From Bryoerythrophyllum caledonicum (lineage: Eukaryota; Streptophyta; Bryopsida; Pottiales; Pottiaceae), in the NCBI GenBank assembly GCA_963971425.1, contig OZ020516.1:19289332-19353331 (forward strand): a stretch of DNA of 64,000 bases, in the 5' to 3' direction. Shown here piece by piece: positions 2,456-56,330 of this stretch. How positions within the stretch are numbered: the first letter of the stretch is position 1; each line of letters begins with the position of its first letter. Made by a program: the position numbers and the translations under genes. The notes under the pieces were generated by a model that did no database searches, had not been told where the DNA came from, and saw only the letters and a list, made by a program, of their open reading frames with translations.

Positions 2456-2740
2456 AAGGCCTAATGTCCATTTCGGGGTTGTTTCGGCACAATAATCTCC
2501 ATAGCAAACACTACAGGTCACCTCCATGTAAAATTCAAACTATGACATAAAGCTGGAGGGAAGATGGGCATCTATTGGGATTGGTGCCATGAAATCCGTG
2601 CAAGCATCAACGAGCTACGGTCATTTGCTTGAAGTGGGGTCGCAATGAAATGTACCCTGTATGTAGGTGTTGTTCTGCATGATCTAGAACACTTGTAGAT
2701 TCTCAAAGGCTAAAAAAACTTATCGGCCTTAAAGTGTTAG
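2456..2740 (+). mobile_element. TTAA-flanked TIR element, family A
   Basis: The left end reads TTAA then TCCTTTAAGGCC; the right end reads GGCCTTAAAGTG then TTAG, giving an internal element of about 277 bp at 2460-2736. Its interior matches 25689-25967 in the same orientation, sharing words such as GTCCATTT, GTTTCGGCACAATAATCT and CATGATCTAGAACACT. There is no coding capacity, so it is a non-autonomous (MITE-like) element. Confidence 0.8.
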
Positions 2741-2933
2741 AATGAAGCAAGAGAGGTCATGTTGTACCATGAATCTTAGCCGCCTTACTTCTCTAGGAAT
2801 TGGTCATAGGAATTTAGAGCCATTTAGGGTTGTTTTGAATAAGAAAAAAGGTCAAAACACACAGTACATGTGCCACACTTAACAAATAACTCTAATGCCC
2901 CAAAAACAAATTATGAAACTGCATTAATCCCTA

Positions 2934-3660
2934 AAGCTCTTTGACATTTTAGCACCCAAATTCATTGAAAACTGCCAATTTCAATGTGTTCAACACAAAA
3001 TGCAAGTAAACATAGTTTTTATATATCTAATTGTAGGATCTTCTACTATGATTGTACAAGTGTGTGTGACAAAAGTCTTGCTCAGTTTGAGTGCATGGAT
3101 TGAAAGAAATTAGTCTGTGAAGTGAGACATAAACTCTTTTTTAGGACATACTAAACACCTTTAACAAACTTTGACCACCTTCCATGGCAAATTTTTGCAC
3201 TACGGGTCATAAATATCTAATTCTAACTTAGAAAGGATCATGTTAGGCACATGTGCACCAAATCCTAGAAGTAGAAGAGGGGTAATAGATGTCATTAAAA
3301 ATCCCGCAATGCAACTATGTGTTGAGAGTCAACAATATACTAACAAGTTCTGCATACATCATATCCTTCTCATACTTTCGAAATTAAAAAATCTGTACGG
3401 TAGATGCAAACATTTCCATTCCCTTCCCAAGAAGAATTTTTCTTTTTTTAAATGGACAAAAACTCGAATTTCTATCGAATTTACAATTGATTAAAATTTT
3501 GCTACATTGTATGTAATGTGTCACACTAAACCGTTGCACTATTTGTAAATGTTACTAAAAATGTTTGTAACTTTAAAACCATGAGTAGAACTTCTACAAA
3601 AGCTATCAAAAAGCTTCCCATTATATTAAAAATCTCAAGAATTCATGCAAAAATTTGAGA
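2934..3660 (+). mobile_element. TTAA-type element, family E2, truncated copy
   Basis: The left end is TTAA then TCCCTAAAG. The interior follows the full-length copy at 47053-47858, for example TTTTAGCACCCAAA, AAAGGATCATGTTAGGCACAT and the segment ending CAAAAACTCGAATTTCTATC. The match fades near 3660 and the right terminal repeat is not recognisable, so this is a decayed copy. An 84-codon open frame inside is accidental. Confidence 0.65.
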
Positions 3661-3749
3661 TGCTCTGGCTCTTAAAATATTTTACAATAAGATGAAGCTC
3701 TTTGGTTGATCGACCAGCACCACTGTCAATTAAAATATGATGCACAAGA

Positions 3750-3932
3750 TTAACGCCTAAATGACCAAGTGTCCGTTTGACTGCAATTATCTTTCAATCC
3801 GTACGGTCAAAACATTCACCACATCATTTCCTATAGGTTTAGGAGAAGATCCTACGGTTACATTATGAAAAAGTTTATCTTTCTCAATGGAGTAGAGATT
3901 CCTCTATGATGCCTTGGTCCTTGCGGGGTTAA
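3750..3932 (-). mobile_element. TTAA-flanked TIR element, family C
   Basis: Left end TTAA + CGCCTAAATGACC, right end GGTCCTTGCGGGG + TTAA, internal length 175 bp (3754-3928). The interior is the reverse complement of the copy at 45208-45424: CAATTATCTTTCAATCCGTA, GAAGATCCTACGGTTACATT and GTAGAGATTCCTCTA are shared. Both flanking TTAA copies are intact. Non-coding. Confidence 0.85.
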
Positions 3933-4821: not shown

Positions 4822-5655
4822 TGGCAATAAGTTGCCCACAAGGACTCAAAATGGGACTCTGGAGGTGTTAAAATTCAATTTGCATGAAATCCATGAGGAA
4901 TTTGGGTTGTGAAATGTGAAGTTCAGATTTACGCACACATTATATGAACACTCTACAAAAATCAGATCATGATTTAGAGTTATGGAACTCATGGAAAAGC
5001 GAGGAGTACAAAACAAAATATATCAAGTACACTAAAACACAGTGAATACCATGCTGCATACTATGTTGTATTTCATACACATGCAGAATGATTTTGGTCT
5101 TAAATTTTGATTGAAGTTTGTCTTTGAGAGATTCTTCATTGTTTTGTGATTGTTGACCTCTCTCATTGCATACAAAACTTTTGTTTTAATTCGTATAAGT
5201 TTGGAACATTTTTGTATACAAATTAAGTAGACAGAAGTTAATAATCATCAATAATCATGTATACATTTTTTCTTCACATATGATATGTTAATGCAAAGCT
5301 ATTGACCTAGTGCACATTTGAACCTCTTGTATTCAAAGTTAAAAAATTCTTGCAAGAATCTATTGATGGATGAAGTGGTATACCCTCCAAAGTGCACAAT
5401 TTTCATTACCAGTATATGGTAACTTCAAACACTATAATCTATTTCCATCAACCATCGTTGGTCAAACATCAAACATCTATAACATCGTTGGATGTTGTGC
5501 AAATTTTCTCCAAAGTTTAGGTCATGGTTTGAGTTCTATTTTGTAAGGCTGGATACTAAAACTAGGCATGGTATTTGCATCAAAGTTAGTCCAAAGAATA
5601 AAATTAGCACATTTATTGGTTTTGGAGAAACATGACCTTGGCGCTAAGGGGTTAA
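4822..5655 (+). mobile_element. TTAA-type element, family D, copy 1
   Basis: The right end reads GCGCTAAGGGG then TTAA at 5652-5655. The left end is worn. The interior matches 36319-37122 over its length, with CAAAATGGGACTCTGGAGGT, TTTGCATGAAATCCATGAGG and ACACATGCA in the same order. The TTAA at the right is shared with the left end (CCCCTAAAGG) of another element starting at 5656. Non-coding. Confidence 0.7.
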
Positions 5656-6744
5656 CCCCTAAAGGACCACAAATATGTTTTTTGAAAAAGGATTTGAAAA
5701 CTACTTCATTTTCTAGTTGTAGGGTATCGTTGCATACTACTGGAAGAACATACCAAATTTTTTTAAGTAATTTTGGAAGATTGGAAGATTGGAAGATTAT
5801 AGCTTTTGAGAGAGATTGAGTGGTCTTTTGCACCGTGATTTTATATGGCCAACACTCTAAGTTTTATGATAAAATGAAACTCTTACACTATGCAAAGTTG
5901 CTATAAAATACGTATTCTCAGTACAATTTCAATTTTGAGTTTTTAAAATTGGATTTCTAAGAAACTGCCCAAATTCTCAATTGTCCCGGAACGGACATTT
6001 TGTCCTGTACAGAGTAATATAAACTCCCCACAACAGACTGAAGGTATTGGAATGATTCGTGTAGTCCACAAACATACTTGCAAAAACATTCACCTAAAGT
6101 GAAAAAGTGTCGTTGGCACAATTAGCGTGTATGGAACAAGAGAGGATAATTGGTGTAGTGAGTCATGAAAGGACAGAGAGTGGGATGACTCAAATTTTCC
6201 TTTATTTTGAATCCACATACATGAATAGATTCCATTTTATTCAATGCCTCAGCCGACAGGTTCTTTGATTGCTTCCTCCTGCCACTGTCACCAGGCCCGG
6301 ATAGTCAGCTTCGGAGGTTTCCTCACCACTGTCCACCACCATGGTCCATGGCTTCCGGAAAATGACATAAGGATGGCTTTGGGAAAATGACATAAGGTAA
6401 GGGTGACCGAGTCGAGAGGCCGACCATCCAAATTTCAGCCCAAACAATGGCGAGAGTCCAAATACTTGGGCTGGAAAAATACATTTAGAAAAGTACTTTA
6501 AAAAGCCTATGAAGATAACGGCCTTTTGAAGGAATTTTAGGTCGGTTAAAAATGGCGACCCAAGATTGGCTTAAGAGGTTGTTGCCTTGGCGCCAATTCT
6601 CTTCAAAAGTGTTGTCATGTGGGCACAACGGGGGATGACGGCCTTTGGACTTTGGCGTCTAGTGTGACGGTCAAGAGGCCAAACTTTGGCCATTCTCCCA
6701 ATCTCATTGACGGCCTCTCAACCTTCGGTCATAGTTTGAAGCAA
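5656..6744. other. Unclassified repeat start and spacer
   Basis: It begins with the element-like end CCCCTAAAGGACC directly after a TTAA, but no matching right end was found. A short tandem of GGAAGATT units is visible near 5774-5798. Overlapping open frames of about 80-100 codons on both strands at 5522-5833 arise from this low-complexity stretch and are not credible genes. Confidence 0.5.
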
Positions 6745-8623: not shown

Positions 8624-10373
8624 GTTCAATCATTCGGAATTGACATGTTGAGACACAAATCTTGTTGCCAAATGTGCAAATCACATTTGCTTTCAAATGA
8701 TTTTCTCTAGGCACCAATCATGATGATGTGCTTGCTACACAAGTTCAGTATGTCAAAAAAATTCAAACTCAATGAATTTGCCAAATGTAGGCTCGTCAAT
8801 TCACACAAATTTGTAGCATGTCATGGCTCATAGGTGGTGGTACGAAAAAAACTATCATATTTTCTCACATTGCCATGTACACCTACATAGCACTGATAGT
8901 TGTAGAGTCTCTACTCATAAAAAATAAAAATAAAAGATAATTCATTTGGAAAAAAATTACTACCCCTCTAAATGAATCTGGTTTTTTTTTTGTGGGTTTG
9001 CAAAAATTACTCAAAAAAAAAGACTTTTGCGATCACAAGTAGTTATTGAAGTCGAGCTATCCACAAGAATGTTTTCCTCTCTTTTTGCCCCTTTCAAATT
9101 ATTTATAGATGATCATGTTCTGGTACTCTTATTGAAAGGTTTGAAAGAGGTCCATGATGGACACTTTTTTTAATTTGATTTTTGGTGAAGAAAAATAAAT
9201 ATTTTACCAATTTTTTGAAAAAGAAATTTCAAATTTCGAACTGCAATTTCTTTTGCAGAAAATTGGCAGTTTGAATAAATAGCAAGATGTGTCCAAGTTT
9301 GTTTTTGAAAATCTCCATAATATGATCGTTTTCTCATTTACTTATTTTTCTTTTGGATAATTCTGTACTGGTACTACAAAAGGCACTTTGTAGAAGTTTG
9401 TTCGTACATTCCTCCATTTTCATGGTTTTTATGTTGGGATAACCTGCAATGGTAACCAGGTGGTCATTCCGTCAAATTTAGTCAGGATGTCTGCCCGAGC
9501 CCTGATTGCCCACCAACCAACGTGAAACTTAACTACAAACATGAAGCACATGCTATCTCATGGTTCCTGAATAATGAATAATGATTTTAAACATATATAA
9601 TTCCTCGAAATTAAGTCGATGCTTTGATACATTGAATGACAAGAGAGTACAACAACATGACATTAAGCACAAGCTTCCCCGAGCTTGGGATATGAGAATA
9701 ATGATACTGATAACAAAAAGAAAAGTTGCAAATATACTTTTCGGCATTTTAATCCATAACCCAAAGTTTCTTATCTAGAGCAATGCTTCCGCCATGGTCC
9801 CCGACAAGTAAGTGGCATCAGCCGTTACTATACATATAAACTCCTTCTACAACAGCCCCGTTTGTTTTACCATCATCTTATCAGTCCACCCCTCGTATCT
9901 ACCACAAGAATAGATAGCTCCCTTTACAACTTTGGGTTGTTTTAGCAGATGTTCTACATGGAGTTGATTGTCCCTCTCTCGTGCTAAAGGGAACACTACC
10001 CTTGTAATTGGGAGGATCAATTCACACCTAAAGAGATAAATTGAATATAAATACTTTAAAAGTACCTAATTTTTTTTCTATTTGTAAAATGATACCGTAC
10101 CTAGTAGTCACTTTCGGCACCTCTCTGTCCAAAGAATTATTTTTCTTTGACATAGTGATTTGGACACACTGTGCATCACCTAAGTATTGCATGGGTATCA
10201 CCTAGGCATTATACATGTAGCACCTTGACATGACATGGGTAATCACCTAGACAAAAAAAAAAATCCCAAAAAATTTGGACACTCTCCATTTTGAATCAAT
10301 TATGTACGAAAGTGACCACCGCGTAGGGTAATCACATTTTAAAAAATTCAGTGATCTCAAATTTTAACCCCTA
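8624..10373. other. AT-rich intergenic DNA, no gene seen
   Basis: Only short open frames without domain features, including opposed frames at 9553-9778 that overlap each other. Several poly(A) and poly(T) runs are present. Nothing convincing was seen. Confidence 0.5.
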
Positions 10374-11302
10374 AATGTCCTTGACGATTTCACACCAAAA
10401 CACTTCAAAGTTGTTAATTTTAGTGCAATGAGTAAGGAAGAAAACAAAAAATTCATTTCTAGTTATAGCCGTAGGGTCTCATTAAACACTTCATAAATGA
10501 CATACACACAAAATTTCATCAACTATGAATGCACGGATTGAAAGATGACAACGTTTGAAGTATGAAAAATGGTTCATTTTCATCCCTACGTTGAGTAGAT
10601 CATCAGACTTTGACTTCACTTGGTGTCAAAGTTTTGCACTACACAAGGTCTTAATTTTATATCACCTTGTTGATCATGATATTAACTCCTTGAACACCAA
10701 TTCATAGAGGTAGAGAAGGGGCGTAGCATATTCAAAAAAATTGTGCAACGAGTGGAGGTTCAAAAAGTGTCAATTCACGTTCTAATTTTTTGGGAACAAA
10801 ATATGTTTTAGAATGATAATCTAAGCCGTCAATAAGAAGGTTTACACCACGTCTTGTATTTAAAAGATCACAAAGTGGAAAATATGAAGATCTCAAAGTT
10901 TTATGTGGAAATGAAGACGTTTTTTGGGGCCTTGCCCAACAATGTGTGAAAATCTTTGACTTGGAATAAAATGTGTTTTTCCACTAAAGAGAAGAAATGT
11001 TTTTGACATCATGAAAGGAAATAACATCACTTGCTAGTTTTGTAAATCTCAAATTTACTAGAGTGTCCGAACAAAAGTTTTTGCAGTTGCCCAATGTGCC
11101 CGCACTCAACAATTTTTTCTTTCAGATGACATAACTTTTTAAAAATAAGTCCGATGACAATAAAAATTATACTCCCAAATAACTCTTCTCTTCTTGCATC
11201 TCTCTACAAAATTTCAAGAATTGCAAATATAAATTGCAACCATGAGAACATGCCCGAGATATACAGAAGACCACCTCCGGACTTTTTTCATTCAAGGGTT
11301 AA
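10374..11302 (+). mobile_element. TTAA-flanked TIR element, family B, copy 1
   Basis: Left end TTAA + CCCCTAAATGTCC, right end CAAGGG + TTAA, internal 10378-11298 (921 bp). The interior runs in parallel with 28682-29959 and 32740-33686: CACACCAAAACACTTCAAA, ACTTTGACTTCACTTGGTGT, GTGTGAAAATCTTTGACTTGG. No open frame exceeds chance, so it is non-autonomous. Confidence 0.8.
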
Positions 11303-25342: not shown

Positions 25343-25379
25343 TTAACCCTTTGAGGCCAATGAGAAAGGTAGGGTGAGA
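25343..25379 (+). mobile_element. Solo left end of a TTAA-type element
   Basis: TTAA followed by CCCTTTGAGGCCAATGAG repeats almost exactly 37 bp downstream at 25380, with AGAAAGGTAGGGTGAG between. It is a truncated or tandemly duplicated element end. Confidence 0.6.
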
Positions 25380-25688
25380 TTGACCCTTCAAGGCCAATGA
25401 GCTTTTTTGGCCTGGGAGGATCTATGAGTGTTCTAGATCATGCAGAAATAGCATCTACGTGACGGCTACATTTCAGAACAAAAATCTACGATTTTGTTTC
25501 ACGGAAATCATCGTAGCTTGTTGATGATTGCATTAATTGTGGTGGCAATGGTCTCAAAAGATGCCCATCTTCCTCCAGCTTTAAGCCATGGTCAATTTTT
25601 TTTTCCTTTGAGGTGGCTTGTAGCGCTTTCTATACACGTTTTTTTCTGGAGTCAGCCCACATATGGTCGATTGGCCTTAAAGGGTTAA
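25380..25688 (-). mobile_element. TTAA-flanked TIR element, family A-like
   Basis: Left TTGA + CCCTTCAAGGCCAATGAG, right GATTGGCCTTAAAGGG + TTAA, internal 25384-25684 (301 bp). The interior reads as the reverse of the neighbouring copy in its outer parts (GTTCTAGATCATGCAGAA, CATTTC, CCTCCAGCTTTA). The right TTAA is shared with the next element. Confidence 0.8.
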
Positions 25689-26447: not shown

Positions 26448-26459
26448 AGGTTTGGGAAG

Positions 26460-26790
26460 CCACATCTGGGTTGCAACATGATGTTTTCTATGTATTTGAC
26501 ATAATATAAGTTGTCAAAATTGATGTATACAATAGTTACAAAAGTATGTAGTTGTGTTCAATCCAATCCAATGACACATGACATATAAGATTTAGATCAT
26601 TATTGCACCTAGTACATGTTTGAGAAGTTGCATAATGGTTATGTATTCTATATGTATGGCGTTGTATTTGAACTTAATAAGGTTAAGATATTGAAATGAC
26701 CACCAACTGAAAGATGTTAGTTGAAGAAATCTTTAACCCAAAGGAATATGTCATACTAAAATTTAACACATTTTTTGTATTTTGAAGATA
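26460..26790 (+). repeat. Dispersed repeat family F, uninterrupted copy
   Basis: Shares GGGTTGCAAC, GATGTATAC(A/C)ATAGTTAC, GTATTTGAAC and AAAGATGTTAGTTGAAGAA with 40433-40720, and the last part with the interrupted copy at 32650-33770. It contains the empty-site word GATGTTAGTTGAAG (from about 26733). Confidence 0.8.
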
Positions 26791-26833
26791 AAGTAGATGA
26801 TTGTATGTATGGTCCTCTAAAGTCCGTTAAAGG

Positions 26834-28352: not shown

Positions 28353-28677
28353 ACGCCGATAAAATAGGGGGTGACATGCAAGATCACTCTATTCTGTTTT
28401 AAGAGACTCTATGGAGGGATGAAATTCAACCTCTAAAGACCAAAAGTTCTAAGGTGAGCTTATGCAATCTTGGGCACATTCTTATGGTTGCAATTTACAT
28501 TTCTAACTTTTTAAATATTGTACAAAATTCAAGTAGGTAAGAGCTTTGTAGGAATACAATTTTTTAATCTTGTATGACATGTAGAGAAAACTATGTCATT
28601 ATTGACAATAAAAATTGTCAAAGGTGGGCACTTTTGACAAATTCAAAAACTTTTGTTCTGGTCTCTATTAATCCCTA
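28353..28677. other. Spacer, no gene seen
   Basis: AT-rich DNA with no open frame of interest. CTTATGCAATCTTGGGCACA-type words resemble a segment near 46205-46300, suggesting another diverged repeat. Confidence 0.45.
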
Positions 28678-29963
28678 AGGTACCGTGACAGTCTTACACC
28701 AAAAACACTTCATAATTGATGGATTCTAGTGCTGTGAACAAAGAAGGAAACAATAACTTTGATTTCTAGTTTTGACTGTAAGATCTCAATTAAGACTTAT
28801 TAAGTTATATACCGTAGGTGAACCTTTGGTCCAGCATAAATTCATTAAAAAGGCCCATGCCAAATTAAGTGGATTTTTTTTTTGAAAATGCAGAAATTGT
28901 AAAAAAATTATATTTACAGATTTTGGCACATGAAGAGACATCAAAGGAAATTAAGGCTTGGAAAGTCTTCATCCATGGCATTTCATGCATAGACACTTGG
29001 GTTTGGGATCCCAAGGTCTTGAGTTCAATCCCCATGGGTGCCAAAGCAAGCCAAATATAGTATTCTTTGATTTCTTGCCGAAAATAACATTATTGTTATG
29101 CCAAATGCTAAATGTCATTTTTTCACTTTAATTAATTATTCGGCATTAAGGTGCCAAACTAGAGGTTCAAGGTGCCAAACTAGAGGTTCACCTACGGTAT
29201 TTACAAAACTTCATAAACTTTGATTGCATTTTCTTCCCTGCATTCAGTGGATCAACAGACTTTGACTTCACTTGGTGTCAAATTTTTGCACTATAGAAGG
29301 TCTAAACCATTACCATCTTGTTAAGCAAGATGTTAGTTTCTTATACACCAATTCTTAGAGGTAGAGGACGAGTGTAGCATATTCAAAACAATTGTGCAAG
29401 GAGTGGAGGTTCAAAATTTGCCAATTCACACTTTAATTTTTTGTGAACTTAATATGTTTTTGATTGATAATACGAATGATCAATAGGAAGGCTTACACCA
29501 CATATTGTTGTGGAAAAAATAAAAAGTGAAAGACATAAAGATATCTAGGTTTTATGTGGAAAACAAGAAGTTTTTTTGGTACCTTGCGCGACAATGAGTG
29601 ACAAAGTGTGAAAATGTTTGACTTGGGTTGGTATGCTATTTTTCACTAAAGACAAGAGCTTTTCAATGACAATGTGAAGAGAAATAATATTACTTGGGGG
29701 TATTGAAGATCTCACATTCAATAGAGTGTCCTAGCAAAAGTTTTTGGAGGTGCCTGAGGTGCCCGCTCTCCTCATTTCAAATTCAAATCCCTGTAACTTT
29801 TTCATCAAATGTCCAATTGAGGAAAAAATTGTTTTCCCACTAAGGTCTTCATAATGCCTTTTTGTAATAAAAATTTCAATGAGGAATGTTGGAAATTCAC
29901 GCCATAGGAACCTGAACAAACTCTTAATAAGCCCATTTTGACACTTGGTCCTATAGGGGTTAA
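28678..29963 (+). mobile_element. TTAA-flanked TIR element, family B, copy 2, interrupted
   Basis: Left TTAA + TCCCTAAGGTACCGTGA, right GGTCCTATAGGGG + TTAA; internal 1278 bp, of which 389 or so belong to the nested insertion at 28809-29199. After removing it the length (about 890 bp) and order agree with 32740-33686. Non-coding. Confidence 0.85.
28809..29199. mobile_element. Nested TA-flanked TIR element, 387 bp
   Basis: TA then CCGTAGGTGAACC opens it and GGTTCACCTACGG then TA closes it: perfect 13-bp terminal inverted repeats. Removing it with one TA leaves AAGTTATATATTTACAAAAC, which aligns without gap to AAGTAATAAATGTACAAAAT in family B copy 3 (about 32872). At its right end GGTGCCAAACTAGAGGTTCA is repeated in tandem. 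Inside, GAGTTCAATCCCC near 29010-29030 resembles a tRNA B box, weak evidence for tRNA-derived content. Confidence 0.8.
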
Positions 29964-32649
29964 TAGGATATTTTTAACACAAATAAATAACGTTTTTTTA
30001 AATTGTCAAAACAAATAAAACTTTAATAATCTAAAACTTTCACTCTCATACAAGTCAATTTTTTCTCACCTTTTTCAGGCAAGGTGCACAAAAAGAATGA
30101 AATTTCTCATAAAAATCGGAAATCTTGGTTTTCCTCATTTGATTTGATTTTCTTCAGGAAGAAGCATGATTCAACCTTAGTTTCAACCGTTTGGTTTTCA
30201 AATTTACACATGAATCAATTAATTAATAATCAAAATGTGGTTTGGCCACTTTAATCTCTTTTCATTACTTAATTTTTTGAGTATGCTTCTCTTTACCAAA
30301 ATGTATAAAATTGGTGTGCAAGGAACTAACATCACATGCATTGTAATGGTATAAAATCTATAATAATGCAAAACTTTGACACCAAATAAAGTCAAAATCT
30401 AATGATTCTATATACGTAGGGAAGAAGAAAAACTTGACTTTCTTCGCTCTAAACTCTGTAATCTTTCAATCCATGCAATCAAAGATTATGAATTTTTGTG
30501 AGCATGTGGTTTTTGTAATATAGATTAGGATCTTACAATTGGAGATGGAAATAATGAAAAAAAAATCACTCTTTGCACTGTAATGAGCTTCTTTAGAAAT
30601 AATTTTAGAGAATTTTTTAGTGAAAATAGTCAAGTAAAGAAGCAGAATGTGAAGGATTTCATGCTCTCTTTTTCTGTACCAATGAAAATGCACAAGTCAT
30701 GATGGAAATCAATGTTCTTGGGCCTTGCCCACTGCAAGCTAAACCCCTTGTCTTTTGCTCCTCTACACATATTGCACGTTTGAACCTCGTCCATTTTCTT
30801 AATGAATATTCTTACAAGTTTTTATTGATCGGTAAAGTGGTACACCCTCCAAAATCCACAATTTACATTATTAATATGTTCGTTGACTTCAAATAAAATT
30901 ATACTATAATCTATCACATTGGCGGTTGAATGTTATGGAATTTTTGTCAAAGTCAAAATCATGGATTAAGTTCATTTTTTATAAGGGTAGTTACTAAAAA
31001 TTGGGCATTCTACTTCTAAAAATAATAATATGAATTGTCCGGCAAGCTCTTCTAACTTAACCCCTACAGGCCCAAGACGTTTTAGAGGAATCTCTACTCC
31101 ATTGATTATAATTTGCCAAGATGAACTTTTTGAGAATGTAACCGCAAGATCTTCTTATAAACTTGTATGAGATGACGTGGTTAAAATTTTGTGAATTTTG
31201 ACTGTACCAATTGAAAGATAACTACAGTCAGTGAATTTATTTGTACCCTGTATGTTCAAAAGTGAAAGTTCATGTAAGTTCATGAGCATGACCATTCCTG
31301 ACCACATTCAAATACCGAAGCGGACCAGATACATTGAACCAAAAAAAACAGCACCACTCAAATCATAGTCTCCTTGAGAAAGACAAACACGACATGATTA
31401 TTTGTCCAGTCATGCAAAGAAACCAAGAGTTTTGATCTCTTCTTATTTTTGAATAATTAAAATCAAATTTGAATAAATCGGGAAAACTTGGATTCTCCGT
31501 ACAACTTGTCCTCTCAACATGAGTTTAGGGACCACCAAGCTCTTCCATACTTAACCCCTAAAGCACGGAGACTATGTTTCACCAAAACCACCCCAAAATT
31601 GCCTCTCTAAGAGAAGACGTCGCAAGACTGAAGAAAAACTTTTCACTATTTTCAAATGTAGGATCTTCAAGTTGCATACTACAAGAAGACACTTAAAACA
31701 TTTTGAAAGCTTTGACCGCATGGATTGTTAAATACATGCATTTGAAGAGTGCAATGTGGTTTTTTTCTTTTCTACAAGGACAAAGTCAACATACTTTGAC
31801 TCAAGATAATGGTATATTTTTCTTCAACATTTTGCATAAATTTCATAAATCTTTGTTCTAACTTGTATTAGGTCATTGCATGCCAAATTTCACAAGTGAT
31901 GAAGGTGTTTAGAATAAGAAAAATGGACTTCCAATGATTATAGGTATAGAAAGTAGGCATTTATTTGGGATTATTTCTTAAATATGAATAATTTTTGGAC
32001 TTGAAATCCAAATGGCGGATATTGTTATGATGCCGTTCCTAGTAGTGGGAATTTTTTGAATTTTAAAGTAGCAAAATCCTTAGCTTTTCAAGTAAAAACA
32101 ATGAGGGTTGCCAAGAACTTTCCTTCACGGCTACCATCAAAAAAATTGCACTATTCAAGTTCTATAGTAGTACTACTCAACTCTATGGTACCGTGCCCAC
32201 ACTGCTTGCTCCCCGCTTGAAATTCAAAACCTTGTAATTTAAGTTTGGTGGAGAGAAGATTATTTTTTTGGCCACCTTGCTTAATTAAGGTGTGAAGGCT
32301 TTGACTTGTCTAAGAGTGATGTTTTACATGATGGAAGGTCATTTTTTGGACACTCAAACAAAATCATATTACTTACTCTTATTAAAAATCTCATATTCTA
32401 TGGGGGGTCGTAGCATAAGTTTTGAAGTGCCCACCCTCAACAACTTTATTTGAAGATGGCATAATTTTTTTCTATTCGTCCGATGTTTTTTTTTACATCT
32501 GTATGTCACTTTTACCTTCTTGCATCTTCATACAACATCCCAAAGATTTGAATTAAAATCTATATTCATAAAAACATGCCTATGATTTGCCAAAGCCCAC
32601 CCTAAGACTTTTGGTCATCATGGGGTACCCTTGAACATCAAAAGTGCCA
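29964..32649. repeat. Decayed mosaic of the same repeat families
   Basis: About 30340-30600 resembles reversed family B; 30640-30770 matches the repeat at 34870; 30770-31030 matches the right part of family D; TTAA+CCCCTACAGG at 31057 opens a reversed family C copy fading near 31250; TTAA+CCCCTAAAGC at 31551 opens a family B-like copy whose tail near 32400-32600 matches 11090-11270 but whose right end is lost. No gene was found. Confidence 0.55.
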
Positions 32650-32735: not shown

Positions 32736-33690
32736 TTAACCCCTAAGGTACCGTGATAGACGTTTTACACCAAAAACACTTCAAAATTAATGGATTCTAG
32801 TGCAATGAATAAAGAAGGTAACAAAAACTTTCATTTTTAGTTCTAACCGTAGGATCTCCATAAAAGCTTATTAAGTAATAAATGTACAAAATTTCATAAA
32901 CTTTGACCGCACGGATTGAAAGATTATAGTGTTTGAAGTCTAGCAAATGGTTCATTTTCTTCCCAGCGTTTAGTGGATCAGCAGACTTTGACTTTAGTTG
33001 GTGTCAAAAATTTTCACTACACAAGGTCTAAATCAATTACCATCTTGTTAAGCATGATGTTAGCTCCTTACACACCAATTTTTAGAGGTAGAGACGGGGT
33101 GTAGCATATTCAAAACAAGTGTGCAAGGAGTGGAGGCTCAAAATTTGTTAATTCACACTTTAATTTTTTTTGAACTTAATATGATTTTGATTGATAATCC
33201 GAATGGTTAATAAGAAGGTTTACATTACATATTTTTGTGGAAAAAATAAAAAGTGAAAAATATGAAGATCTCTAGGTTTTATGTGGAAAAGAAGAAGTTT
33301 TTTGGTACCTTGCCCAACAAAGAGTGACAATGTGTGAAAATGTTTGACTTGGGTTGGTATGCTATTTTTCACTGAAGACAAGAACTTTTTTTGGACAATA
33401 TGAAGGGAAATATTATTACTTGCGAGTACTGAAAATCTCACTTTCAATAGAGTGTCCTATCAAAAGTTTTTGGAGGTGCCCGAGGTGCCCGCCCTCCCCA
33501 TTTAAAATTCAAAACCCTATAACTTTTTCATCAAATGTCCAATTTAGGAAAAAATAGTTTTCCCACTAAGATCTTGGTAATGTCTTTCTACAATAAAAAT
33601 TTCAAAGAAGAATGTTGGAAATTGACACCATAGGAACCTGACCGAACTTTCAAAAAGCCCATTTTTGACACTTGGTACCTTAGGGGTTAA
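32736..33690 (+). mobile_element. TTAA-flanked TIR element, family B, copy 3, intact ends
   Basis: TTAA + CCCCTAAGGTACCGTGA opens and TTGGTACCTTAGGGG + TTAA closes; internal 32740-33686 (947 bp). Both TTAA copies are perfect. It interrupts repeat family F exactly where the uninterrupted copies read GATG-TTAG-TTGAAG, so one target tetramer became two. It has no coding capacity and looks the least decayed of family B. Confidence 0.92.
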
Positions 33691-34085: not shown

Positions 34086-34688
34086 TTAACCCCTAAAGTC
34101 GAAATCGACCAGAATGTGGTCGACCTGACTCTGGTCAGGCTCTCAGTTACTAAATTTAGATCGTATGTAGTTACAATTTTGGATGGTTGTAGAGTTTTCC
34201 CATACCTTTAAAATGACACCATTCATGCTTCAAAATTCCTCATACTTTAGGAGATATTCACGGTCAAAGTTTGAAAACACTGTTAGGGCATGCCTCCATG
34301 TGAAAAATTAAGCATTTCTTTAGGTTTTATAGGTCCTATGAGGGTAAAAATTATATGGACATATTCCTTACTCACATAGAAACAAGAATTTGAAGAGCCT
34401 CATGTCAAATTTCCTTTCAAAATTGGTTTTTTTGGCCCCCAAAACATTAGTTTTCCATTCTACAACAAGGAAACAATCTTTTTTTCAACTTTGAACATTA
34501 TGATCTCACAAATGGAGAGGAATTTGAATCTAAGATTCGGCATGCATGTACATGTACAAGTTAGGTACTAGATCTTACGGTTACATACTCGAAAATTTGT
34601 CAAAAGTTAAAAATTTTCACCTTGCATTGAAAGAGGGCAGTTTTGAGGGTTTTTGGCAGTTTTGAGGGCTTTCGACTTTAGGGGTTAA
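34086..34688 (+). mobile_element. TTAA-flanked TIR element, family F2, 595 bp
   Basis: TTAA + CCCCTAAAGTCGAAA and TTTCGACTTTAGGGG + TTAA are perfect 15-bp terminal inverted repeats with perfect TTAA flanks. Just inside the left end, GGTCGACCTGACTC and GGTCAGG words form a smaller palindrome. The right TTAA (34685-34688) is also the left TTAA of the next element. No coding capacity. Confidence 0.92.
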
Positions 34689-35735
34689 CCCTGTAGTGCC
34701 TACGAGATCCAAAATGGGACTTTGAAGGTGTTAAAAACTCAATTTGCATGAAATCCATGAGGAGGAATTAGGTTGTGAAATGTGAAGATCATATTTGCGC
34801 ACACATTAGAGTTTTCTTGAAAGTGCTTCCGAGGAGGCAAGCCGGGAGGAATATGGTGCCTGGCCGTATGTGATTTAGTAACGGAAAGAAAGAGAGCTTG
34901 AGGAATTTCACATCCCTTTTTACTGCTCCAATGAAATGCTTGGCAATCAATGCTCTTGGGCCATGTCCCATGCAAGCTAAAGCTCCTCTAAGTTCTCAAA
35001 GAGTTGACCAATAGTTCCCCCACACCTTTCCCAAGCCAAGTCACCATGAGCATGTGGTCCCACTTTCTAACATAAGGCCGTAAGATTCTGGGTGACTATA
35101 CAATATATTTCAATTGCTTTCTCGTTATATAGAGTACATAATGCGAGTTTAAATATAGTTGTTTGTTAATATTTTGCTTAAAACACAGTTGCTTGTTAAT
35201 ATTTTGCTTGTGAGTTTGATGCATTTGCCTTCTTTTTTAATTAATGAACAAACAACTTTAAGGGACGCAATGATAAGCCAATGCTATGCCCTTTTTTGGC
35301 TTTGCTGAGAGGGGGGGTTGAGGCTTGACGAAGCCTAACAAACAACGAATGGCTAAGGTTTCTTGACAATTTATTGCTATAATAGATGGTACTAATTGAG
35401 TAGTACCAGAAATTCTTACCTTTTTCACTTCACAAACAGGCTTTACATTTTCTATGGCATCAACCAAAAGTACTTTCAGGAAAACTCTATTACATGAACA
35501 CTCTACAAAAATCAGATCATGATTTGAAGTTACAGAATTCATGGAAAAGCCAGGAGTACAACACAAAATACATCAAGTACACTAAAATACAGTGAATACC
35601 ATGCCGCATACTAGGTTGTATTTCATACACATGCAAAGTAATCTTGGTCTTAAATTTTGATTGAAATTTGTCTCTAAGAGATTCTTTATTTTGTGATTGT
35701 TGATTACTCTATTGCATACAAACTTGTTGATTACA
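34685..35735 (+). mobile_element. TTAA-type element, family D, copy 2, interrupted
   Basis: Starts TTAA + CCCTGTAGTGCC, follows the family D order (CAAAATGGGACTTTGAAGGT, TTTGCATGAAATCCATGAGG, TTTGCGCACACATT), is broken by a 681-bp insertion, and resumes at 35489 (ACATGAACACTCTAC) to about 35735, where family C-like sequence follows. The right terminus is missing. Confidence 0.8.
34805..35491. mobile_element. Nested TIR element with ATT target duplication, 681 bp
   Basis: ATT + AGAGTTTTCTTGAAAGT opens and ACTTTCAGGAAAACTCT + ATT closes, inserted into a family D copy. The other family D copy at 4938-4960 reads GCACACATTATATGAACACT without interruption, matching the predicted empty site. The interior shares the 27180/30640 repeat (CACCTTTCCCAAGCCAAG). 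A 102-codon frame in it shows no domain. The superfamily is uncertain. Confidence 0.85.
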
Positions 35736-36314: not shown

Positions 36315-37126
36315 TGAACCCTTTACCGCCCATGGAGACCGAAATGGGACTCTGGAGGTGCTAAAACTCGATTTGCATGAAATCCATGAGGTATTAGGCT
36401 TTAAGATACCATGTTCAGATTTGCGCACACATTAACACATAAACACTCTCCAACAATCAGACCATAATTTGGATTTATAGAACTCTTGGAAAAGCTAGGA
36501 ATACAACACAAAATACATCAAATACACTAAAATACAGTGAATACAGTGAATACCATGCCACATACTATGTTGTATTTCACACACATGCACATCAATTTTG
36601 GTTTTAAATTTTGATTGAACTTTGTCTTTAAGACATTCTTCATTGTTTTGTGATTGTTGACCTCTCTCCTCACATACGAAACTTCCATTTTGATTCGTAT
36701 AAGGTTGGAACATTTTTGTATACAATCAAGTAGGAAAAAGAAAAAAAATCATCAATAATTGTGTAAAAATATTTTCTTCACATATGATATGTCAATGCGA
36801 AGCTATCAACCTAGTGCACATGTGAACCGCTCAAATTCAAAGTAAGAGAATTCTTGCAAGAATCCATTGATGGTAAAAATAATACACCCTCCAAAATCCA
36901 CAGTTTTCACTACCAATATACGGTAACTTTAAACACTAGAATCTATTCCATCAACCGTTGGATGTTGTGCAAAATTTCCCCAAAGTTCAGGTCATGGGTG
37001 AAGTTCAATTTTGTAAGGTTAGATATTAATACTAGTCATTGAATCTCCATCATCTCCGGTTCAAAGAAAAAAAATCAGCAGAAATCTTAGTTTTTCCAGA
37101 AACATCCCTGGGCGGTAAAGGGTTAA
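36315..37126 (+). mobile_element. TTAA-type TIR element, family D, full-length copy
   Basis: Left TGAA + CCCTTTACCGCCCATGG, right CCCTGGGCGGTAAAGGG + TTAA (37123-37126), internal 804 bp. This copy defines both ends of family D. The left flank carries one change from TTAA. Non-coding. Confidence 0.85.
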
Positions 37127-37316
37127 GAAACACCCAAAAGTAAGGTTAGCACTAATTGCACAGAGGAGTGGCAGCCCCTGGCACTGGCATTGAGACTCTT
37201 TCCGAGCCCTTTTCCATTGGCTCCATGAGAGCCATCAGTTATCCATGCCGCCCCCCTTCAACAAAAAAAAAAAAAAAAAAAACTTCAACGTATCACTCAA
37301 CCACCCTATCAACAGA
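37127..37316. other. Spacer with poly(A) run
   Basis: A run of about 20 A lies at 37262-37282. The preceding GC-richer 37170-37258 has no open frame of note. Confidence 0.5.
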
Positions 37317-45203: not shown

Positions 45204-45428
45204 TTAGCCCCTAAAGAACCACATTCAATTTTAGAGGAATCTCTACTCCATCGATTAACAATTGTCAAGGTGAACTTTATGAGAATTTAACCGTAAGATC
45301 TTCTTTAAACTTACATGAGACGATGTGGTAAATCTTTTGTGGATTTTGACCCTATGGATTGAAAGATAATTGTAGTCAAAGTGAAAAAATTTGTCCTCCA
45401 AACGGACACTTGGTCCTTTAGGGATTAA
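45204..45428 (+). mobile_element. TTAA-flanked TIR element, family C, full-length
   Basis: Left TTAG + CCCCTAAAGAACCACA, right CTTGGTCCTTTAGGGA + TTAA, internal 45208-45424 (217 bp). Contains TTTTAGAGGAATCTCTACTC, AACCGTAAGATCTTC and GAAAGATAATTGTAGTCAAA; opposite orientation to the copy at 3754. Non-coding. Confidence 0.88.
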
Positions 45429-47052: not shown

Positions 47053-47858
47053 ATAACCCCTAAAGGCCAAGGCATTTTAGCACCCAAACTCACTGAAAAT
47101 TGCTAGTTTCAATGCATTCAATTGAGAGTGCAAATCAACACAATTTTTTACATATCTAACCATAGGATCTTGTACTAGGATTGTACAAGTATATGTGGTA
47201 AATTTTTGATCAATTTGACGACACGTATTGAAAGATATTAGCCTTTGAAGTGATACATAAACTCTACTTGAGGTCATACTAAACACCTTCATCAAACTTC
47301 AACCACCTTCTATTGAAACTTTTTGCACTATGATATGTGATTTTCTAATTTTAACTTAAAAAGGATCATGTTAGGCACATCTGCACCAAATTTTAGAAGT
47401 AGAAGAGGGGTAGAAGATGTCCCTAAAAATTCTGCAATGCAACTATGTGCTAAGAATCAACAACACACTTCAAGTTTTGCATATATCATATCCTCCTCAT
47501 ATTTTCAAAATTCAAAAATCCATACGATCGATGCAAAGATTCCATTTCCTTTTCAGGAGGAGTTTTATTTTTTTAGATGGACAAAAACTCGAATTTCTAT
47601 CGAATTTAGAGTTAATTAGAGTTTTGCTACACTATTTGTTATATGTCACTCTAAATCGCTGCACTATTTGTATATATTACAGAAAATAAATCGTAACTTT
47701 TGAACCGTAAGTCAAATTTCTACAAAAATTATGTCTCCTGGAAGCTAATAAAAAGTTGCCCATTCAATGAAAAAAAAATCATGCCTAAATTTGAGAACGT
47801 GGTACCCTATCCAAACTCAAAATGTCCCTCAAGGGGACATGGGGCCTTTAGGGGTTAA
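47053..47858 (+). mobile_element. TTAA-type TIR element, family E2, full-length
   Basis: Left ATAA + CCCCTAAAGGCC, right GGGGCCTTTAGGGG + TTAA, internal 798 bp. The interior is collinear with 2938-3660. Frames of 83 and 90 codons overlap each other in it and are not credible. Non-autonomous. Confidence 0.88.
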
Positions 47859-49933: not shown

Positions 49934-51477
49934 ATGGAGTCGGAGTCTAGGACGGTGGTGGCGTCCTACAGCGAGCGGTGCCTGGTGGCGCCGTCGCCTG
50001 AGGTGCGCGCGCAGATGCTGGAGCGCTACAATGAGATCAAGGAGTCCCTGGCGCAGACGCAGGAGCAGTCGTTCCTGCGCCAGGTGCTGCGACCCGTGGA
50101 GCGGCGCCAGGTGGGCTTCAACGACGGCGTGGTGCGGCCGCCGGCGACCTTCCCGCCGGGCGTCTCCCTCGCTAGCCAGCTCCAGGAGCGCGCGCCGCTG
50201 CGCGGCACTGTGAACGTGGCGGTGGTGATGGTCGACTTCTCCGACAAGAAGTTCACGTCCACCCAGACGAAGGAGCACTTCTCCAAGCTCTGGTTCGAGG
50301 AGGGCACCAACAGCGTGCGGGACTACTACCGCGACGTCTCCAACGGCCTGGTGACCATCACGGGCGAGGTCGTGGGCCCCTTCCGCATGCCGCAGCCGAT
50401 CGCGTACTACGCCAATGGCCAGAACGGGCTGAGCGACGCCACGCCAAACGCGCAGGTGATGGCGCTGGACGCGGCCAAGCTCGCGGACCCCAAGATCAGC
50501 TTCAAGAGCTACGACAATGACGGTGACGGATATGTGGATGCGTTCGTGATCGTGCACGCGGGCGCGGGCGCGGAGCGTACCCAGAAGGGGAATGACATCT
50601 GGTCGCACAAGTGGGTGCTCGAGGGTGGGCCGTACCAGGCGGATGGGACTCAAATCTTCAGCTACCTGACGGTGCCCGGCGACTGCAAGCTGGGCGTGTG
50701 CGCGCACGAGCTGGGCCACCTCGCGTTCGGCTGGCCCGACCTCTACGACGCAGACTACACGTCCGAGGGGATTGGCGTGTGGTGCCTCATGGCGGCGGGC
50801 AGCTACAACGGCGACGAGAACAACCCGTCCACCCCCTGCGCGTGGTGCAAGGCGGACCAGGGCTGGGTGCAGGTCGTCACTCCCACTGCAACTCAACAGG
50901 TCTCCCTGCCCGACGTCAAGGACACGCACACCGTTCTCAAGCTCTGGAAGGACGGTGCCCCTCGTACCGAGTACTTCCTGGCGGAGAACCGTCAGAAGAA
51001 GGGCCGCGACGCGGATTTACCCGCGGGCGGACTGCTCCTGTGGCATATCGACGAGACCAAGGAGGACAATACGAACGAGCGCACGGCGTACAAGGTGGCG
51101 CTGGTACAGGGCGACGGGAAGCGCGAGCTGGAGAGTAACGTCGACCGCGGCGATGCCGGCGACCCGCTACCGGGGTCCGAGGGCGTGCGCCGCCTCGACT
51201 CCACCAGCAACCCGTCCACAAAGGCCAACAACGGCGCGCCCTCCGGCGTCGCTATCTCCGACATCTCCGACCCGAAGGTACGTATTATTGCCCATACGAG
51301 AAATTAACATGCAGCTAGATATCATGCCGTAAACTTTACCTTGTGTTCACAAAATTGTGTGTGATGCAGGATGTGATGACTTTCACTGTGAGCGTGAGCG
51401 AGAAGAAGGTCGCTGCAGCGCAGCTGCAACAGACGTCTGAGCCCGCGACCACTAAAGTTCATTTGAGCACGCATTGA
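49934..51477 (+). CDS. M6-family (immune inhibitor A-like) metalloprotease, 483 aa, two exons
   Basis: Exons 49934-51277 and 51370-51477 join in phase (...DISDPK/DVMTFTVSV). Residues 258-262 are HELGH, followed by LAFGWPDLYD, giving the zinc ligands H258, H262 and probably D269; E259 is the catalytic base. WCLMAAGSY (about 283-291) corresponds to a Met-turn. YDNDGDGYVDAFVIVHAG (193-210) is the calcium-type Asp-rich loop usual just before the M6 active site. VAVVMVDFSD starts the catalytic domain near 95. Bacterial relatives are secreted; no signal peptide is visible here (MESESRTVVASYSERC), so an intracellular location is possible. M6 peptidases are chiefly bacterial, but this gene has a normal plant intron and host-like GC-rich codons. 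A 399-codon antisense frame is a shadow. Confidence 0.9.
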
Positions 51478-53571: not shown

Positions 53572-54270
53572 ATGGTCAGTTGGTTGGTTTCGGGAAGTTT
53601 TTGGAGTTTTGGCCGTTTCTTTTTGGTTAGGGTTTTGGTGGATTCGAAATTCTTGCTTGCTTGGTCGTGTTTTTGGTTAGGGTTTAGGATTTCTTGCTCG
53701 CGGGATTGTGTTCTGGTTTTAGTTTAGGGTTTCTTTGCTTGCGGGAGTGTTCTGGTTAGGTTTAGGGTTTCTTGCTCGCGGGATAGTGTTCTGGTTAGGG
53801 TTTGGGGTCTTTTCTGAGAAGAGGTGGGGTGGTTGCAGGGTCGTGTGAGGACGAAGACCGTGAAGAAGGCCTCCCGGGTGATGATCGAGAGGTACTACTC
53901 TCGCATGACCCTGGACTTCCAGACCAACAAGAAGATCGCGGAGGAGGTGGCGATCATTCCGTCCAAGCGGCTGCGGAACAAGATTGCGGGGTTTGCCACG
54001 CATTTAATGAAGCGCATCCAGCGGGGGCCGGTGCGCGGGATCTCCCTGAAGCTGCAGGAGGAGGAGCGCGAGCGCCGCATGGACTTCGTGCCGGAGGAGT
54101 CCGCCATTAAGACCGACGTCATCGAGGTGGACCGCGAGACCATTGAGCTGTTGGCGCACCTCAACATGCCCCAGCTCCCGGGCGTGGTGCTGCAGCCGCC
54201 TCCCGCGGCGGGCGGCTTCTTCAAGCCGCAAGTCGGTGGGTTCCAGGGCAACAACAGGAACAGGAACTAG
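53572..54270 (+). CDS. RPS17: 40S ribosomal protein eS17, 144 aa, two exons
   Basis: Exon 1 contributes only the ATG (53572-53574), then a 264-bp intron, then 53839-54270. The protein [59 protein letters not shown] and [18 protein letters not shown] is eS17 throughout. It binds in the small subunit head/beak area. The initiator-codon-only exon means a frame-based caller would start at 53824 instead. The intron holds tandem telo-box repeats. The C-terminus ([10 protein letters not shown]) is a short basic tail. Confidence 0.96.
53673..53812 (+). repeat. Tandem repeat with telo-box motifs in the eS17 intron
   Basis: Three diverged units of about 40-45 bp each contain TTAGGGTTT or TTTAGGGTTT followed by CTTGCTCGCGGGA and GTGTTCTGG; a fourth is partial (TTAGGGTTTGGGG). 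AAACCCTA-type motifs are known plant ribosomal-gene regulatory elements; here they have been multiplied inside the first intron. Confidence 0.85.
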
Positions 54271-55004
54271 ACAGATTTGGCAGGCATCCATGTTCGGTGC
54301 ATCAGCGAAGATGTACTATCCGGGTAAATGAAATATGACAATGACAAGCGCGTCTTTCTTTCAGTATCCTCATGCGTGATGGACCTGTTGGGATGTTCAA
54401 ACTTTTCAGTGAGCTAAGCCTATTTTTCCTTCCGTAAGCAATTTACGGAATATGGAATTGCTACCTCTTGATTTCCAAAATTTAGGTCGGAATCTTTTCT
54501 AAGTGTGCCTGTTATTATGTGGTTGGCCTTCATCAGATATTCCGTTTGCACTGGCTGTGAATGTGTGAGGTTCTTTGATTTTCGCTTTTGTTGTCGTTGT
54601 TACTTGGACTTTTGCTGCATCTGTTGTCCGTTGCAATGTCAGGAACTGCAAAAGCAAAGGATTCATGTCAATGCACAGGATTATTTGACTGGCAAGCGTG
54701 AAATGAAGGAAAGGGAAAGACATGAATAGGTTGTGGAACAGGTAACCTACAGTACTGCAAGAAGTGGATGTTGTCTTTAGACACAGGACATACACTGATC
54801 CTTTAGACAGCTTACATCTAAGTGCAGTCCTGGTGGATGGGTCTAATAAATACCTAGTAGAAGTTGAAACTTAGTCAAATCTTCGCAAAGGGCTTGGGAA
54901 CTTCAATCTGGCCATTACCTCTATCCATTCATGTTAGCAGAGGTTTAAGGTAGCAAAGTTTAGTGGAAATTATAACTTAGTTAGCAAATGTTAGTGGAAA
55001 TTAT
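54271..55004. other. 3-prime region of eS17 and spacer
   Basis: A 3-prime untranslated region is likely in the first 150 bp. The opposed frames at 54499-54795 lack domains. TTAGTGGAAATTATAACTTAG/GACCTAG is tandemly repeated near 54960-55010. Confidence 0.5.
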
Positions 55005-55205
55005 GACCTAGTCAGGACCCCTTAATTTTGGTTGACTCATGTGGGGGGTTACCTAATGGTGGCCACCCACTAAACATGGCAGCACACTTTGAAAATTCAC
55101 AACTGATTCACATTTCATTGGAAAAATATGAAATTACTTGGGTTGAAATTGTAATTTTATTGGCTATTACTGAAAAATAAATGTATTTTTATTTGCTCTC
55201 CCCAT
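55005..55205 (-). repeat. Dispersed repeat family E, copy 4, reversed
   Basis: Read on the minus strand it gives CAATAAAATTACAATTTCAA, AATGTGAATCAGTTGTGAAT and AACCAAAATTAAGGGGTCCT, matching 810-970. Confidence 0.75.
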
Positions 55206-55397
55206 ATATGCACATTGCTTAACCTGTTGGGTATGGAGGGCTTACCTCAATTTACAACTTATCTAAGGAATGAGTCTAGGTAAGTGGTATGAAACTACCC
55301 TACCTCCCCCTCTTGAAGGTACATCCTTCCTTTTCCTTCTATTACTACTATTTGTCCACTCCTCATAGCTGTAGGTATGGGAGATTTTGATCATGTT

Positions 55398-56330
55398 TTA
55401 ACCCCTAAAGGACTGAACATCCCCCCGGGGTCATTTTGGATTTCGGGCGTGTACCTACAATTCGAAAAAAAATCCTTTTTAATTGAATTTTTTTTTCAAG
55501 ATAGGATCTGATAAGAGCTTCCCGGAGATATTTTTTTATTTTTTTTTGGATTTGTGGTTTGAAAGTTAGTACCACTTAAAGCCAAAAGTGGGACTTCGGG
55601 CACCTCCAAAATTTTTGACAAAAGTTTCTATTGACATTGAGATTTTTGACACACATAAATAATATTTCCTTATTTAGAAAATTTCAAAAAAAAATCTTGT
55701 CTTTAGTGTAAAAAGGCATTTTATTCCAAGTCAAACATTTTCACACATTGTCCGGCAACGGGGGAAAAAAACTTCATCTTTTCTACATAAAACCTAGAGA
55801 TCTTCATATTTTTCACTTTTTTTTTTTTCAACAACAATATATGGTGAAAACCTTCTTATTGACCGTTTGGATTATCATTTGAATACAAACGTAGTTCACA
55901 AAAAAATAAAACGTGAAATGGCAATTTTTGAACCTCCACTCCTTGCACACTTGTTTTGAATATGCTACACCCCTTTTTTACCTCTAAAAATTGGTGTGTT
56001 GGGAAATAGCATCATGCTTAAGACAATGGTAAAAGATTTAGACCTTGTACAATGCAAAAATTTGATACAAAATGAAGTCAAAGTCAGCTGATCTACTCAA
56101 CGCAGGGATGAAAATGAACCATTGTTTTGACTTTAAACACTAAAATCTATCAATCCGTGTGGTGGATTGCAACCAAAATTTGATGGCATGTTTATATGGA
56201 AGTCTATTTTAAGATCTAACGGTTGAAACTCCAAAATTCACTTTAAAATGTGATTTTCATGTCTCTTTTTGACAGTGGCAGTTTTGGACTGGTTTTAGAG
56301 CGAATTAGGTCGTCGTCCTTTAGGGATTAA
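55398..56330 (-). mobile_element. TTAA-flanked TIR element, family B, copy 4, reversed
   Basis: Left TTAA + CCCCTAAAGGACTGAAC, right CGTCCTTTAGGGA + TTAA, internal 55402-56326 (925 bp). On the minus strand it is collinear with 10378-11298 (for example ACTTTGACTTCATTTTGTAT, AAAAATTGCCATTTCACGTT). Non-coding. Confidence 0.87.

What the first reader, a model, noticed from the sequence alone, without database searches (positions are those of the whole stretch)
2456..56330. A multi-family set of TTAA-flanked MITEs with piggyBac-type ends in a plant genome
At least eight sequence families (A, B, C, D, E2, F2, G and one at 26834) share only their ends: TTAA-CCC(C/T)... and ...GGG-TTAA. Of about fifteen left ends I could read, the outermost T is kept in nearly all, and of about fourteen right ends the outermost A is kept in nearly all. 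A plain TA duplication would not require those outer bases. TTAA target plus CCY-starting termini is the piggyBac hallmark. I know this superfamily as mainly animal, fungal and protist, so an abundant non-autonomous population in a plant would be noteworthy.
Basis: partly seen in the sequence, partly recalled or inferred. Interest (0 to 1): 0.85.

Follow-up and report, generated by a model that had tools for sequence, protein, structure and literature searches.

The report
Native piggyBac transposons in a moss
This moss genome carries real piggyBac jumping genes, with their own cutting enzyme, together with a large population of short enzyme-less copies flanked by TTAA; piggyBac is best known from animals, so a native plant set is unusual and useful.

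Summary
The window has 30 TTAA-CCCYTWAR-like ends against 3.1 expected. Its own 437-Mb genome has 11,278 exact copies of TTAACCCCTAAAG against 10 for the reversed control. In the scored genome copies of families B and D nearly all alignments stop at the outer T and outer A of TTAA, in the older family C most do. One nested copy gives a clean empty/filled pair, TTAA versus TTAA-element-TTAA; four further insertions have unfilled relatives. The genome yields at least 120 matches to the piggyBac transposase family PF13843. All 20 fetched keep the three catalytic aspartates; 11 of the 20 could be placed between TTAA-CCC ends, and in 10 of these 11 the tip sequence follows the transposase clade. 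Several window families share subterminal sequence with autonomous elements, so they are best read as non-autonomous derivatives. The host is a land plant, most probably a moss. This is a new occurrence of a known kind: piggyBac in plants has been mentioned in print, but my searches listed no moss report.

The parts
32736..33690 (+). Family B non-autonomous element, 955 bp, TTAA-CCCCTAAGGTACC...GGTACCTTAGGGG-TTAA
   Evidence: inserted in a repeat whose unfilled relatives lie at 26644-26803 and 40584-40708
28668..29963 (+). Second family B copy, 1296 bp; 28810-29226 (417 bp) stands in place of 72 bp of the 32736 copy; left end TTAA-TCCC
34086..34688 (+). Family D element, 603 bp, both TTAA intact; a related copy of about 890 bp gives the empty/filled pair
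47053..47858 (+). Family C element, 806 bp; left flank ATAA, right TTAA
55398..56330 (-). Family B-related element, 933 bp, in the orientation opposite to 32736; end at 56330 is TTAA-TCCCTAAAGG
   Evidence: end at 55398 matches the L027 left end under the tip
36315..37126 (+). Family A element, 812 bp, TIR CCCTTTACCGCCCA on both sides; left flank TGAA
4849..5655 (+). Older family A copy; left end worn, right end CCCCTTAGCGCC-TTAA
   Evidence: right end matches the L011 left end under the tip (48 against null maximum 38)
25343..25688 (+). Short element, 346 bp, CCCTTTRAGGCCAAT TIR, both TTAA intact; relative begins at 2446
10364..11107 (+). Family B-related copy, left end TTAA-CCCCTAAAT intact, right end not defined
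2924..3732 (+). Older family C copy; left TTAA-TCCCTAAAG; right end inferred from the alignment with 47053-47858
31057..31068 (+). Left end TTAA-CCCCTACAG (family related to 3778-3932, 36149-36300, 45229-45394)
31551..31562 (+). Left end TTAA-CCCCTAAAG; matches the autonomous L011 left end under the tip
5644..5663 (.). Two elements abutting on one shared TTAA (CGCTAAGGGG-TTAA-CCCCTAAAGG)
34682..34696 (.). Family D right end and family A-related left end abutting on one shared TTAA

Best explanation
The window lies in a moss genome with a diverse piggyBac population. Autonomous elements of about 4-7.5 kb encode a DDD transposase with a C-terminal cysteine-rich domain. They carry TTAA-flanked terminal repeats mainly of two types, CCCCTAAA... 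and CCCTTAAACG..., each belonging to its own transposase clade. The window families are non-autonomous derivatives that keep the ends and, in several families, part of the subterminal sequence, and are moved in trans: the transposase cuts at the TTAA junction and pastes into a new TTAA, which is duplicated. Shown: ends, TTAA duplication, autonomous elements, clade-matched ends, subterminal kinship for several families. Inferred: trans-mobilisation, cut-and-paste chemistry, seamless excision.
For: Genome-wide excess of the end motif; TTAA boundaries in three families; empty versus filled site; four further insertions with unfilled relatives, for the L011 carrier 17 of 23 unfilled places reading TTAA, several of them one nested copy shared by related carriers; 120 PF13843 matches from 116 scored of 305 candidates, best E 6.2e-81 (0 of 14 named control genomes, which carry little weight because the one named elsewhere is a cyanobacterium); three Asp in 20 of 20; profile match to T. 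ni piggyBac 6x67 (E 3.2e-58) and piggyBat 9c0f (8.7e-54), single-sequence alignment over the three catalytic motifs; seven invariant C-terminal Cys/His columns in 7 of 7 aligned; two autonomous copies 97.2% identical from TTAA to TTAA with different flanks; tips following the clade in 10 of 11; subterminal homology of MITE and autonomous ends with TTAA and nine tip bases removed.
Against: For most CCCTTT-type ends (36315, 37126, 25343, 25688, 8623, 34685) comparison with 16 autonomous ends found nothing above the null maximum, so their link rests on TTAA and the tip; only the older family A copy at 5655 rises above it. Matches to the right end of L027 (used by 32736 left and 34688 right) are less secure because that end of L027 is itself uncertain (one search gives a second candidate, one search shows a complex locus). 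In the 20 fetched loci, 9 have no secure pair of ends; L012 and L014 are cut by contig ends. The ends of L015, L020, L026, L027 and L028 rest on matching tips alone. L023 breaks the clade rule for tips (CCCGTGAG and CCCCTAAG). For L021, 12 of 16 unfilled relatives read TTGA and 1 reads TTAA. No excision or expression was observed.
Confidence: 0.95

Rival explanations
1. Part of the set, above all the CCCTTT families, belongs to another TTAA-duplicating superfamily such as Kolobok or Sola3 and only resembles piggyBac at the tips.
For: Six of the CCCTTT-type ends tested show no subterminal homology to the 16 autonomous ends. That Kolobok and Sola3 duplicate TTAA is recalled.
Against: Clade II piggyBac elements have similar tips, CCCTTAAACGCCCAGG in L016 and CCCTTTATTGACA in L028, against CCCTTTACCGCCCAGG at 37126, and the older family A end at 5655 matches the L011 end above the null. 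Other TTAA superfamilies were not searched for in this genome.
Confidence: 0.05
2. Tc1/mariner (TA) or PIF/Harbinger (TWA/TTA) MITEs whose flanks look like TTAA by chance.
For: A Harbinger-type DDE_Tnp_4 fragment lies in the window at 42801-43253.
Against: The outer T and A are conserved and all four bases are duplicated; the transposase between such ends is PF13843. The end-like sites nearest to the Harbinger fragment are about 1.95 kb and 5.7 kb away.
Confidence: 0.01
3. The piggyBac-bearing sequence is an animal or protist contaminant in a plant assembly.
For: The assembly holds two plastid contigs with PsaB 702 of 720 identical, so the sample may not be pure.
Against: piggyBac matches are spread over 13 of the contigs numbered 1 to 15, one of them about 192 kb from the window on the same 38-Mb contig; the window itself holds a plant-type gene.
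Confidence: 0.02

Closest known systems
piggyBac (Trichoplusia ni, PDB 6x67) and piggyBat (PDB 9c0f)
   Same: DDD transposase core, C-terminal cysteine-rich region, TTAA duplicated, CCY-starting ends (the properties of the animal elements are recalled or from passages)
   Different: Plant host; distant in sequence (phmmer E 1.4e-28 and 1.5e-24); transposase frames with long N-terminal extensions, up to 1059 aa; elements of about 4-7.5 kb
piggyBac-derived MITEs of other eukaryotes
   Same: Short non-autonomous copies with TTAA and shared tips; that piggyBac elements produce MITEs is stated in PMC9942856 (passage)
   Different: Window copies are long for MITEs (346-1296 bp); genome-wide 11,278 exact ends of one tip sequence
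Plant MITEs of the Tourist (PIF/Harbinger) and Stowaway (Tc1/mariner) types
   Same: Abundant small TIR elements (recalled)
   Different: TTAA instead of TA or TWA, piggyBac transposase
'PiggyBac' MITEs and repeats listed for plants (PMC10004981 passage; C-fern table)
   Same: Same superfamily label in plants
   Different: The passages I saw give a label or a count only; I did not read the works they cite

Membership tests
piggyBac superfamily | Exact TTAA target-site duplication | tested here: met
   Empty versus filled site; unfilled relatives of four of 18 insertions tested; alignment ends
piggyBac superfamily | Short terminal inverted repeats starting CCY | tested here: met
   10 of 20 loci have a pair with both TTAA exact and at least 11 of 14 tip matches around the transposase; I accept 8 (L015, L016, L020, L021, L023, L026, L027, L028) and set aside L017 (left end looks like a nested MITE) and that pair of L009 (its right end is that of a nested family B copy). 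L009, L011, L013 were defined by comparison with each other. 0 of 51 TTAACCC...GGGTTAA pairs in 400 shuffled loci reached 11 of 14
piggyBac superfamily | PF13843 transposase with three catalytic Asp | tested here: met
   At least 120 matches; the three Asp in 20 of 20 fetched, 4 of 20 with stops inside the domain
piggyBac superfamily | C-terminal cysteine-rich domain | tested here: met
   Seven invariant Cys/His columns at the C-terminus in 7 of 7 aligned proteins; among the 20, L025 is cut short there and L017 has a changed pattern
piggyBac superfamily | Seamless excision restoring TTAA | not testable with these tools
   An empty site cannot be told from a restored one by sequence alone
MITE (non-autonomous derivative of these elements) | No transposase, TIRs and TSD shared with an autonomous element, high copy | tested here: met
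   First-look candidates 8025 (B), 2631 (C), 663 (D), 40 scored in each; subterminal kinship above the null maximum for 9 of 19 window ends tested
MITE (non-autonomous derivative of these elements) | Subterminal kinship for the CCCTTT families | tested here: inconclusive
   36315, 37126, 25343, 25688, 8623, 34685 under the null maximum; the older family A end 5655 above it (48 against 38)
Tc1/mariner | TA duplication only | tested here: not met
PIF/Harbinger | 3-bp TWA/TTA duplication and DDE_Tnp_4 transposase | tested here: not met
Kolobok / Sola3 | Own transposase between TTAA-flanked ends | not tested
   These families were not searched for in the genome

The most novel reading that the evidence does not exclude
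A land plant holds a native, recently and perhaps still active piggyBac system: at least two deep transposase clades, each with its own end code and its own swarm of derivatives, including a carrier that has kept transposing after another derivative landed inside it.
Probability: 0.55. Interest if true: 0.72.

Novelty: new member of a known kind. Interest (0 to 1): 0.6.

Why it matters
It shows a piggyBac population, autonomous and non-autonomous, in a plant. It offers plant transposases with matched ends for transposition tests, and it adds a TTAA-targeting class to the usual plant TIR superfamilies, which annotation tuned to other duplications may mislabel (inference). It also raises a testable question: old resident of land plants, or horizontal arrival in mosses.

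Tried and rejected
Preference for inserting next to one another was considered because three shared TTAA sites occur in the window (3926, 5649, 34682; the left end at 3929 is weak). The exact palindrome CTTTAGGGGTTAACCCCTAAAG occurs at 21 sites in the genome. With about 5,640 elements having exact ends (half) and about 2.4 million TTAA sites (346 per 64 kb, extrapolated), random landing would give about 13.5 by my own arithmetic, so there is no strong preference.

A viral source was looked for: 25 stretches in viral contigs matched a peptide pattern, none was a relative. The large insertion in L009 relative to L011:5644-5651 has no TTAA and was set aside as not of this kind. Ends of L010, L012, L014, L017, L018, L019, L022, L024, L025 were left undefined, L017 among them although its best pair scores 11 of 14.

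A further family (36305-37136) and the count of TTAACCCTTAAACGCC could not be run: the genome service did not answer. The central survey of piggyBac-like elements (recalled as Genome Biol Evol 2017) was asked for by a recalled DOI and is not held. NCBIfam gave no relevant match.
Full report
Where it is. The window is part of contig C3 (19,289,332-19,353,331) of a 437-Mb assembly with 894 contigs. Two contigs with plastid PsaA/PsaB genes are in the assembly. PsaB from C894 scores best against chains 7ksq, 6l35 and 8htu (1666 bits; next 1633), and so does PsaB from C821 (1659; next 1627). The paper on photosystem I of the moss Physcomitrium patens (PMC7884438) mentions 6L35 four times; the passages that I saw name the moss. 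The other two chains are recalled as the same species. The window contains a gene with VARLMGL and DUF3741 motifs and an amino-acid transporter. The host is a land plant and most probably a moss; no species name was obtained.

The ends. Thirty TTAACCCYTWAR-like sites stand in the window against 3.12 expected. The exact 13-mer TTAACCCCTAAAG is found 11,278 times in the genome, against 10 for the same letters reversed. Elements with both ends read in the window are 25343-25688, 28668-29963, 32736-33690, 34086-34688, 36315-37126, 47053-47858 and 55398-56330.

The target. I aligned window elements plus 6-10 flanking bases to the genome and looked where the alignments end. For family B, 37 of 39 copies reach the outer left T (28 end exactly there) and 39 of 39 the outer right A (26 exactly). 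Of the two left misses one starts at base 33 of the query; the other at 63, with a separate piece that stops one base short of the outer T. Seven fragment rows, that piece among them, were dropped before the count. For family D it is 37 of 39 (28 exactly) and 39 of 39 (22 exactly). For family C, 34 of 40 reach the second left base, the window copy having ATAA, and 31 of 40 the outer right A. The search scored 40 places of 8025, 663 and 2631 first-look candidates for B, D and C, so these are the best-matching copies and not a random sample, and the candidate numbers are not verified copy numbers.

Duplication on insertion. In L009 a piggyBac carrier reads CCCAATATAG-TTAA-CAAGAAATC. In L011 and L013 the same place reads CCCAATATAG-TTAA-CCCCTAAAG...CTTTAGGGG-TTAA-CAAGAAATC, filled by a family D copy. 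Joining the flanks of other insertions found unfilled relatives for four of 18 elements tested. For the L011 carrier 17 of 23 unfilled places read TTAA; some of these are one nested copy shared by related carriers. For L023 the closest copy (87 of 100 aligned columns identical) reads TTAA and two others TGAA and TGTA. For the window's B element one copy reads TTAA and two TTAG. For L021 one of 16 reads TTAA and 12 read TTGA, which suggests that the element landed in a variant copy.

The enzyme. PF13843 gives 120 matches in this genome, best E 6.2e-81, from 116 scored of 305 candidates; a few genes are split into two matches. None of 14 control genomes has a match, which says little, since the one of them that is named is a cyanobacterium. 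Twenty loci were fetched. All 20 keep the three aspartates; 4 of 20 have stops inside the domain. The alignments with T. ni piggyBac and piggyBat cover the same three motifs; a profile of seven of the proteins reaches residues 25-582 of 6x67 with E 3.2e-58. Seven invariant Cys/His columns lie at the C-terminus.

Autonomous elements. L016 and L021 are 97.2% identical over 4,944 aligned columns, exactly from TTAA to TTAA, with different flanks; their tips are CCCTTAAACGCC (left, both), CCCTTAAACGCC (L016 right) and CCCTTAAATGCC (L021 right). Ten of 20 loci have a pair with exact TTAA on both sides and at least 11 of 14 matching tip bases around the transposase; among 51 such TTAACCC...GGGTTAA pairs in 400 shuffled loci none did. 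I accept eight and set two aside: L017, whose left end looks like a nested MITE, and that pair of L009, which ends on a nested family B copy. L009, L011 and L013 were instead defined by mutual comparison: their tips agree less (9 of 14), but homology stops at TTAA with unlike flanks. The ends of L015, L020, L026, L027 and L028 rest on tips alone, and L027 has a second candidate right end. L011 and L013 are 99.4% identical over 5,761 bp including the nested family D copy, so the carrier moved after that insertion.

Tips and clades. A tree of the 20 splits into 14 and 6 rows (100/99 support). Of the rows with defined ends, all 5 in the larger group have CCCCTAAA tips, and 5 of 6 in the smaller have CCCTT tips; L023, a long branch, has CCCGTGAG on the left and CCCCTAAG on the right. 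The tree was rooted at the midpoint and holds no outside sequences.

From enzyme to window. With TTAA and the next nine bases removed, window ends still match autonomous ends above the best of 100 shuffles: 33690 right (111 against 45), 55398 left (78/36), 31551 left (69/36), 47858 right (64/38), 32736 left (64/51), 34688 right (57/42), 5655 right (48/38), and more narrowly 10364 left (44/40) and 31057 left (44/41). That is 9 of 19 ends tested. Level with the null maximum: 47053 left (38/38) and 3932 right (36/36). Under it: 34086 left, 36315 left, 37126 right, 5652 left, 25343 left, 25688 right, 8623 right, 34685 left. The shuffles keep only single-base content. So several CCCCTAAA-type families are tied to the larger clade; most CCCTTT-type ends are tied by tip and target only.

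What is known. Passages seen in PMC10140906, PMC8086355, PMC10794571 and PMC10004981 state that piggyBac elements or MITEs occur in plants; a table passage of the C-fern paper lists 1,230 PiggyBac-labelled repeats; a passage of a 2008 grapevine paper says that only five other superfamilies were known in plants. Searches for piggyBac with moss (20 of 26 listed), bryophyte (3 of 3), Physcomitr- (35 of 37), mosses (5 of 6) and Viridiplantae (5 of 5), and for DDE_Tnp_1_7 with plant (13 of 13), listed no title or abstract reporting piggyBac transposons in a moss. I judged these from the listings, except the Niphotrichum moss paper, where the word was 'piggybacking', and the C-fern and MITE papers named above. 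The library holds only open-licence papers.

Verdict. A genuine piggyBac population in a plant that is most probably a moss, with its derivatives in the window: a new occurrence of a known kind, well documented here by sequence, with movement in trans and seamless excision still inferred.

Noticed in passing
window 58116-62348 (-): Copia-type retroelement frames (my reading of the translations) between 163-bp direct repeats, 97% identical (57922-58084 and 62572-62734), which may be short LTRs.
   Followed up: no
window 49895-51304 (+): Single open frame of 470 aa with a Peptidase_M6 domain (PF05547, E 1.1e-23), a family I recall mainly from bacteria.
   Followed up: no
window 42801-43253 (-): Fragment of a Harbinger-type DDE_Tnp_4 transposase.
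   Followed up: no
G000 contigs C894 and C821: Two plastid contigs whose PsaB proteins are 702 of 720 identical, both closest to moss chains; perhaps a second moss in the sample or a deviating copy.
   Followed up: partly
L011, L013, L014 transposase N-termini: A GEVGGEGG-type repeat differs in number between otherwise near-identical transposase frames (813, 805, 821 aa).
   Followed up: no
window 38497-38925: Degenerate array of GTGGATTATGGT-like units.
   Followed up: no
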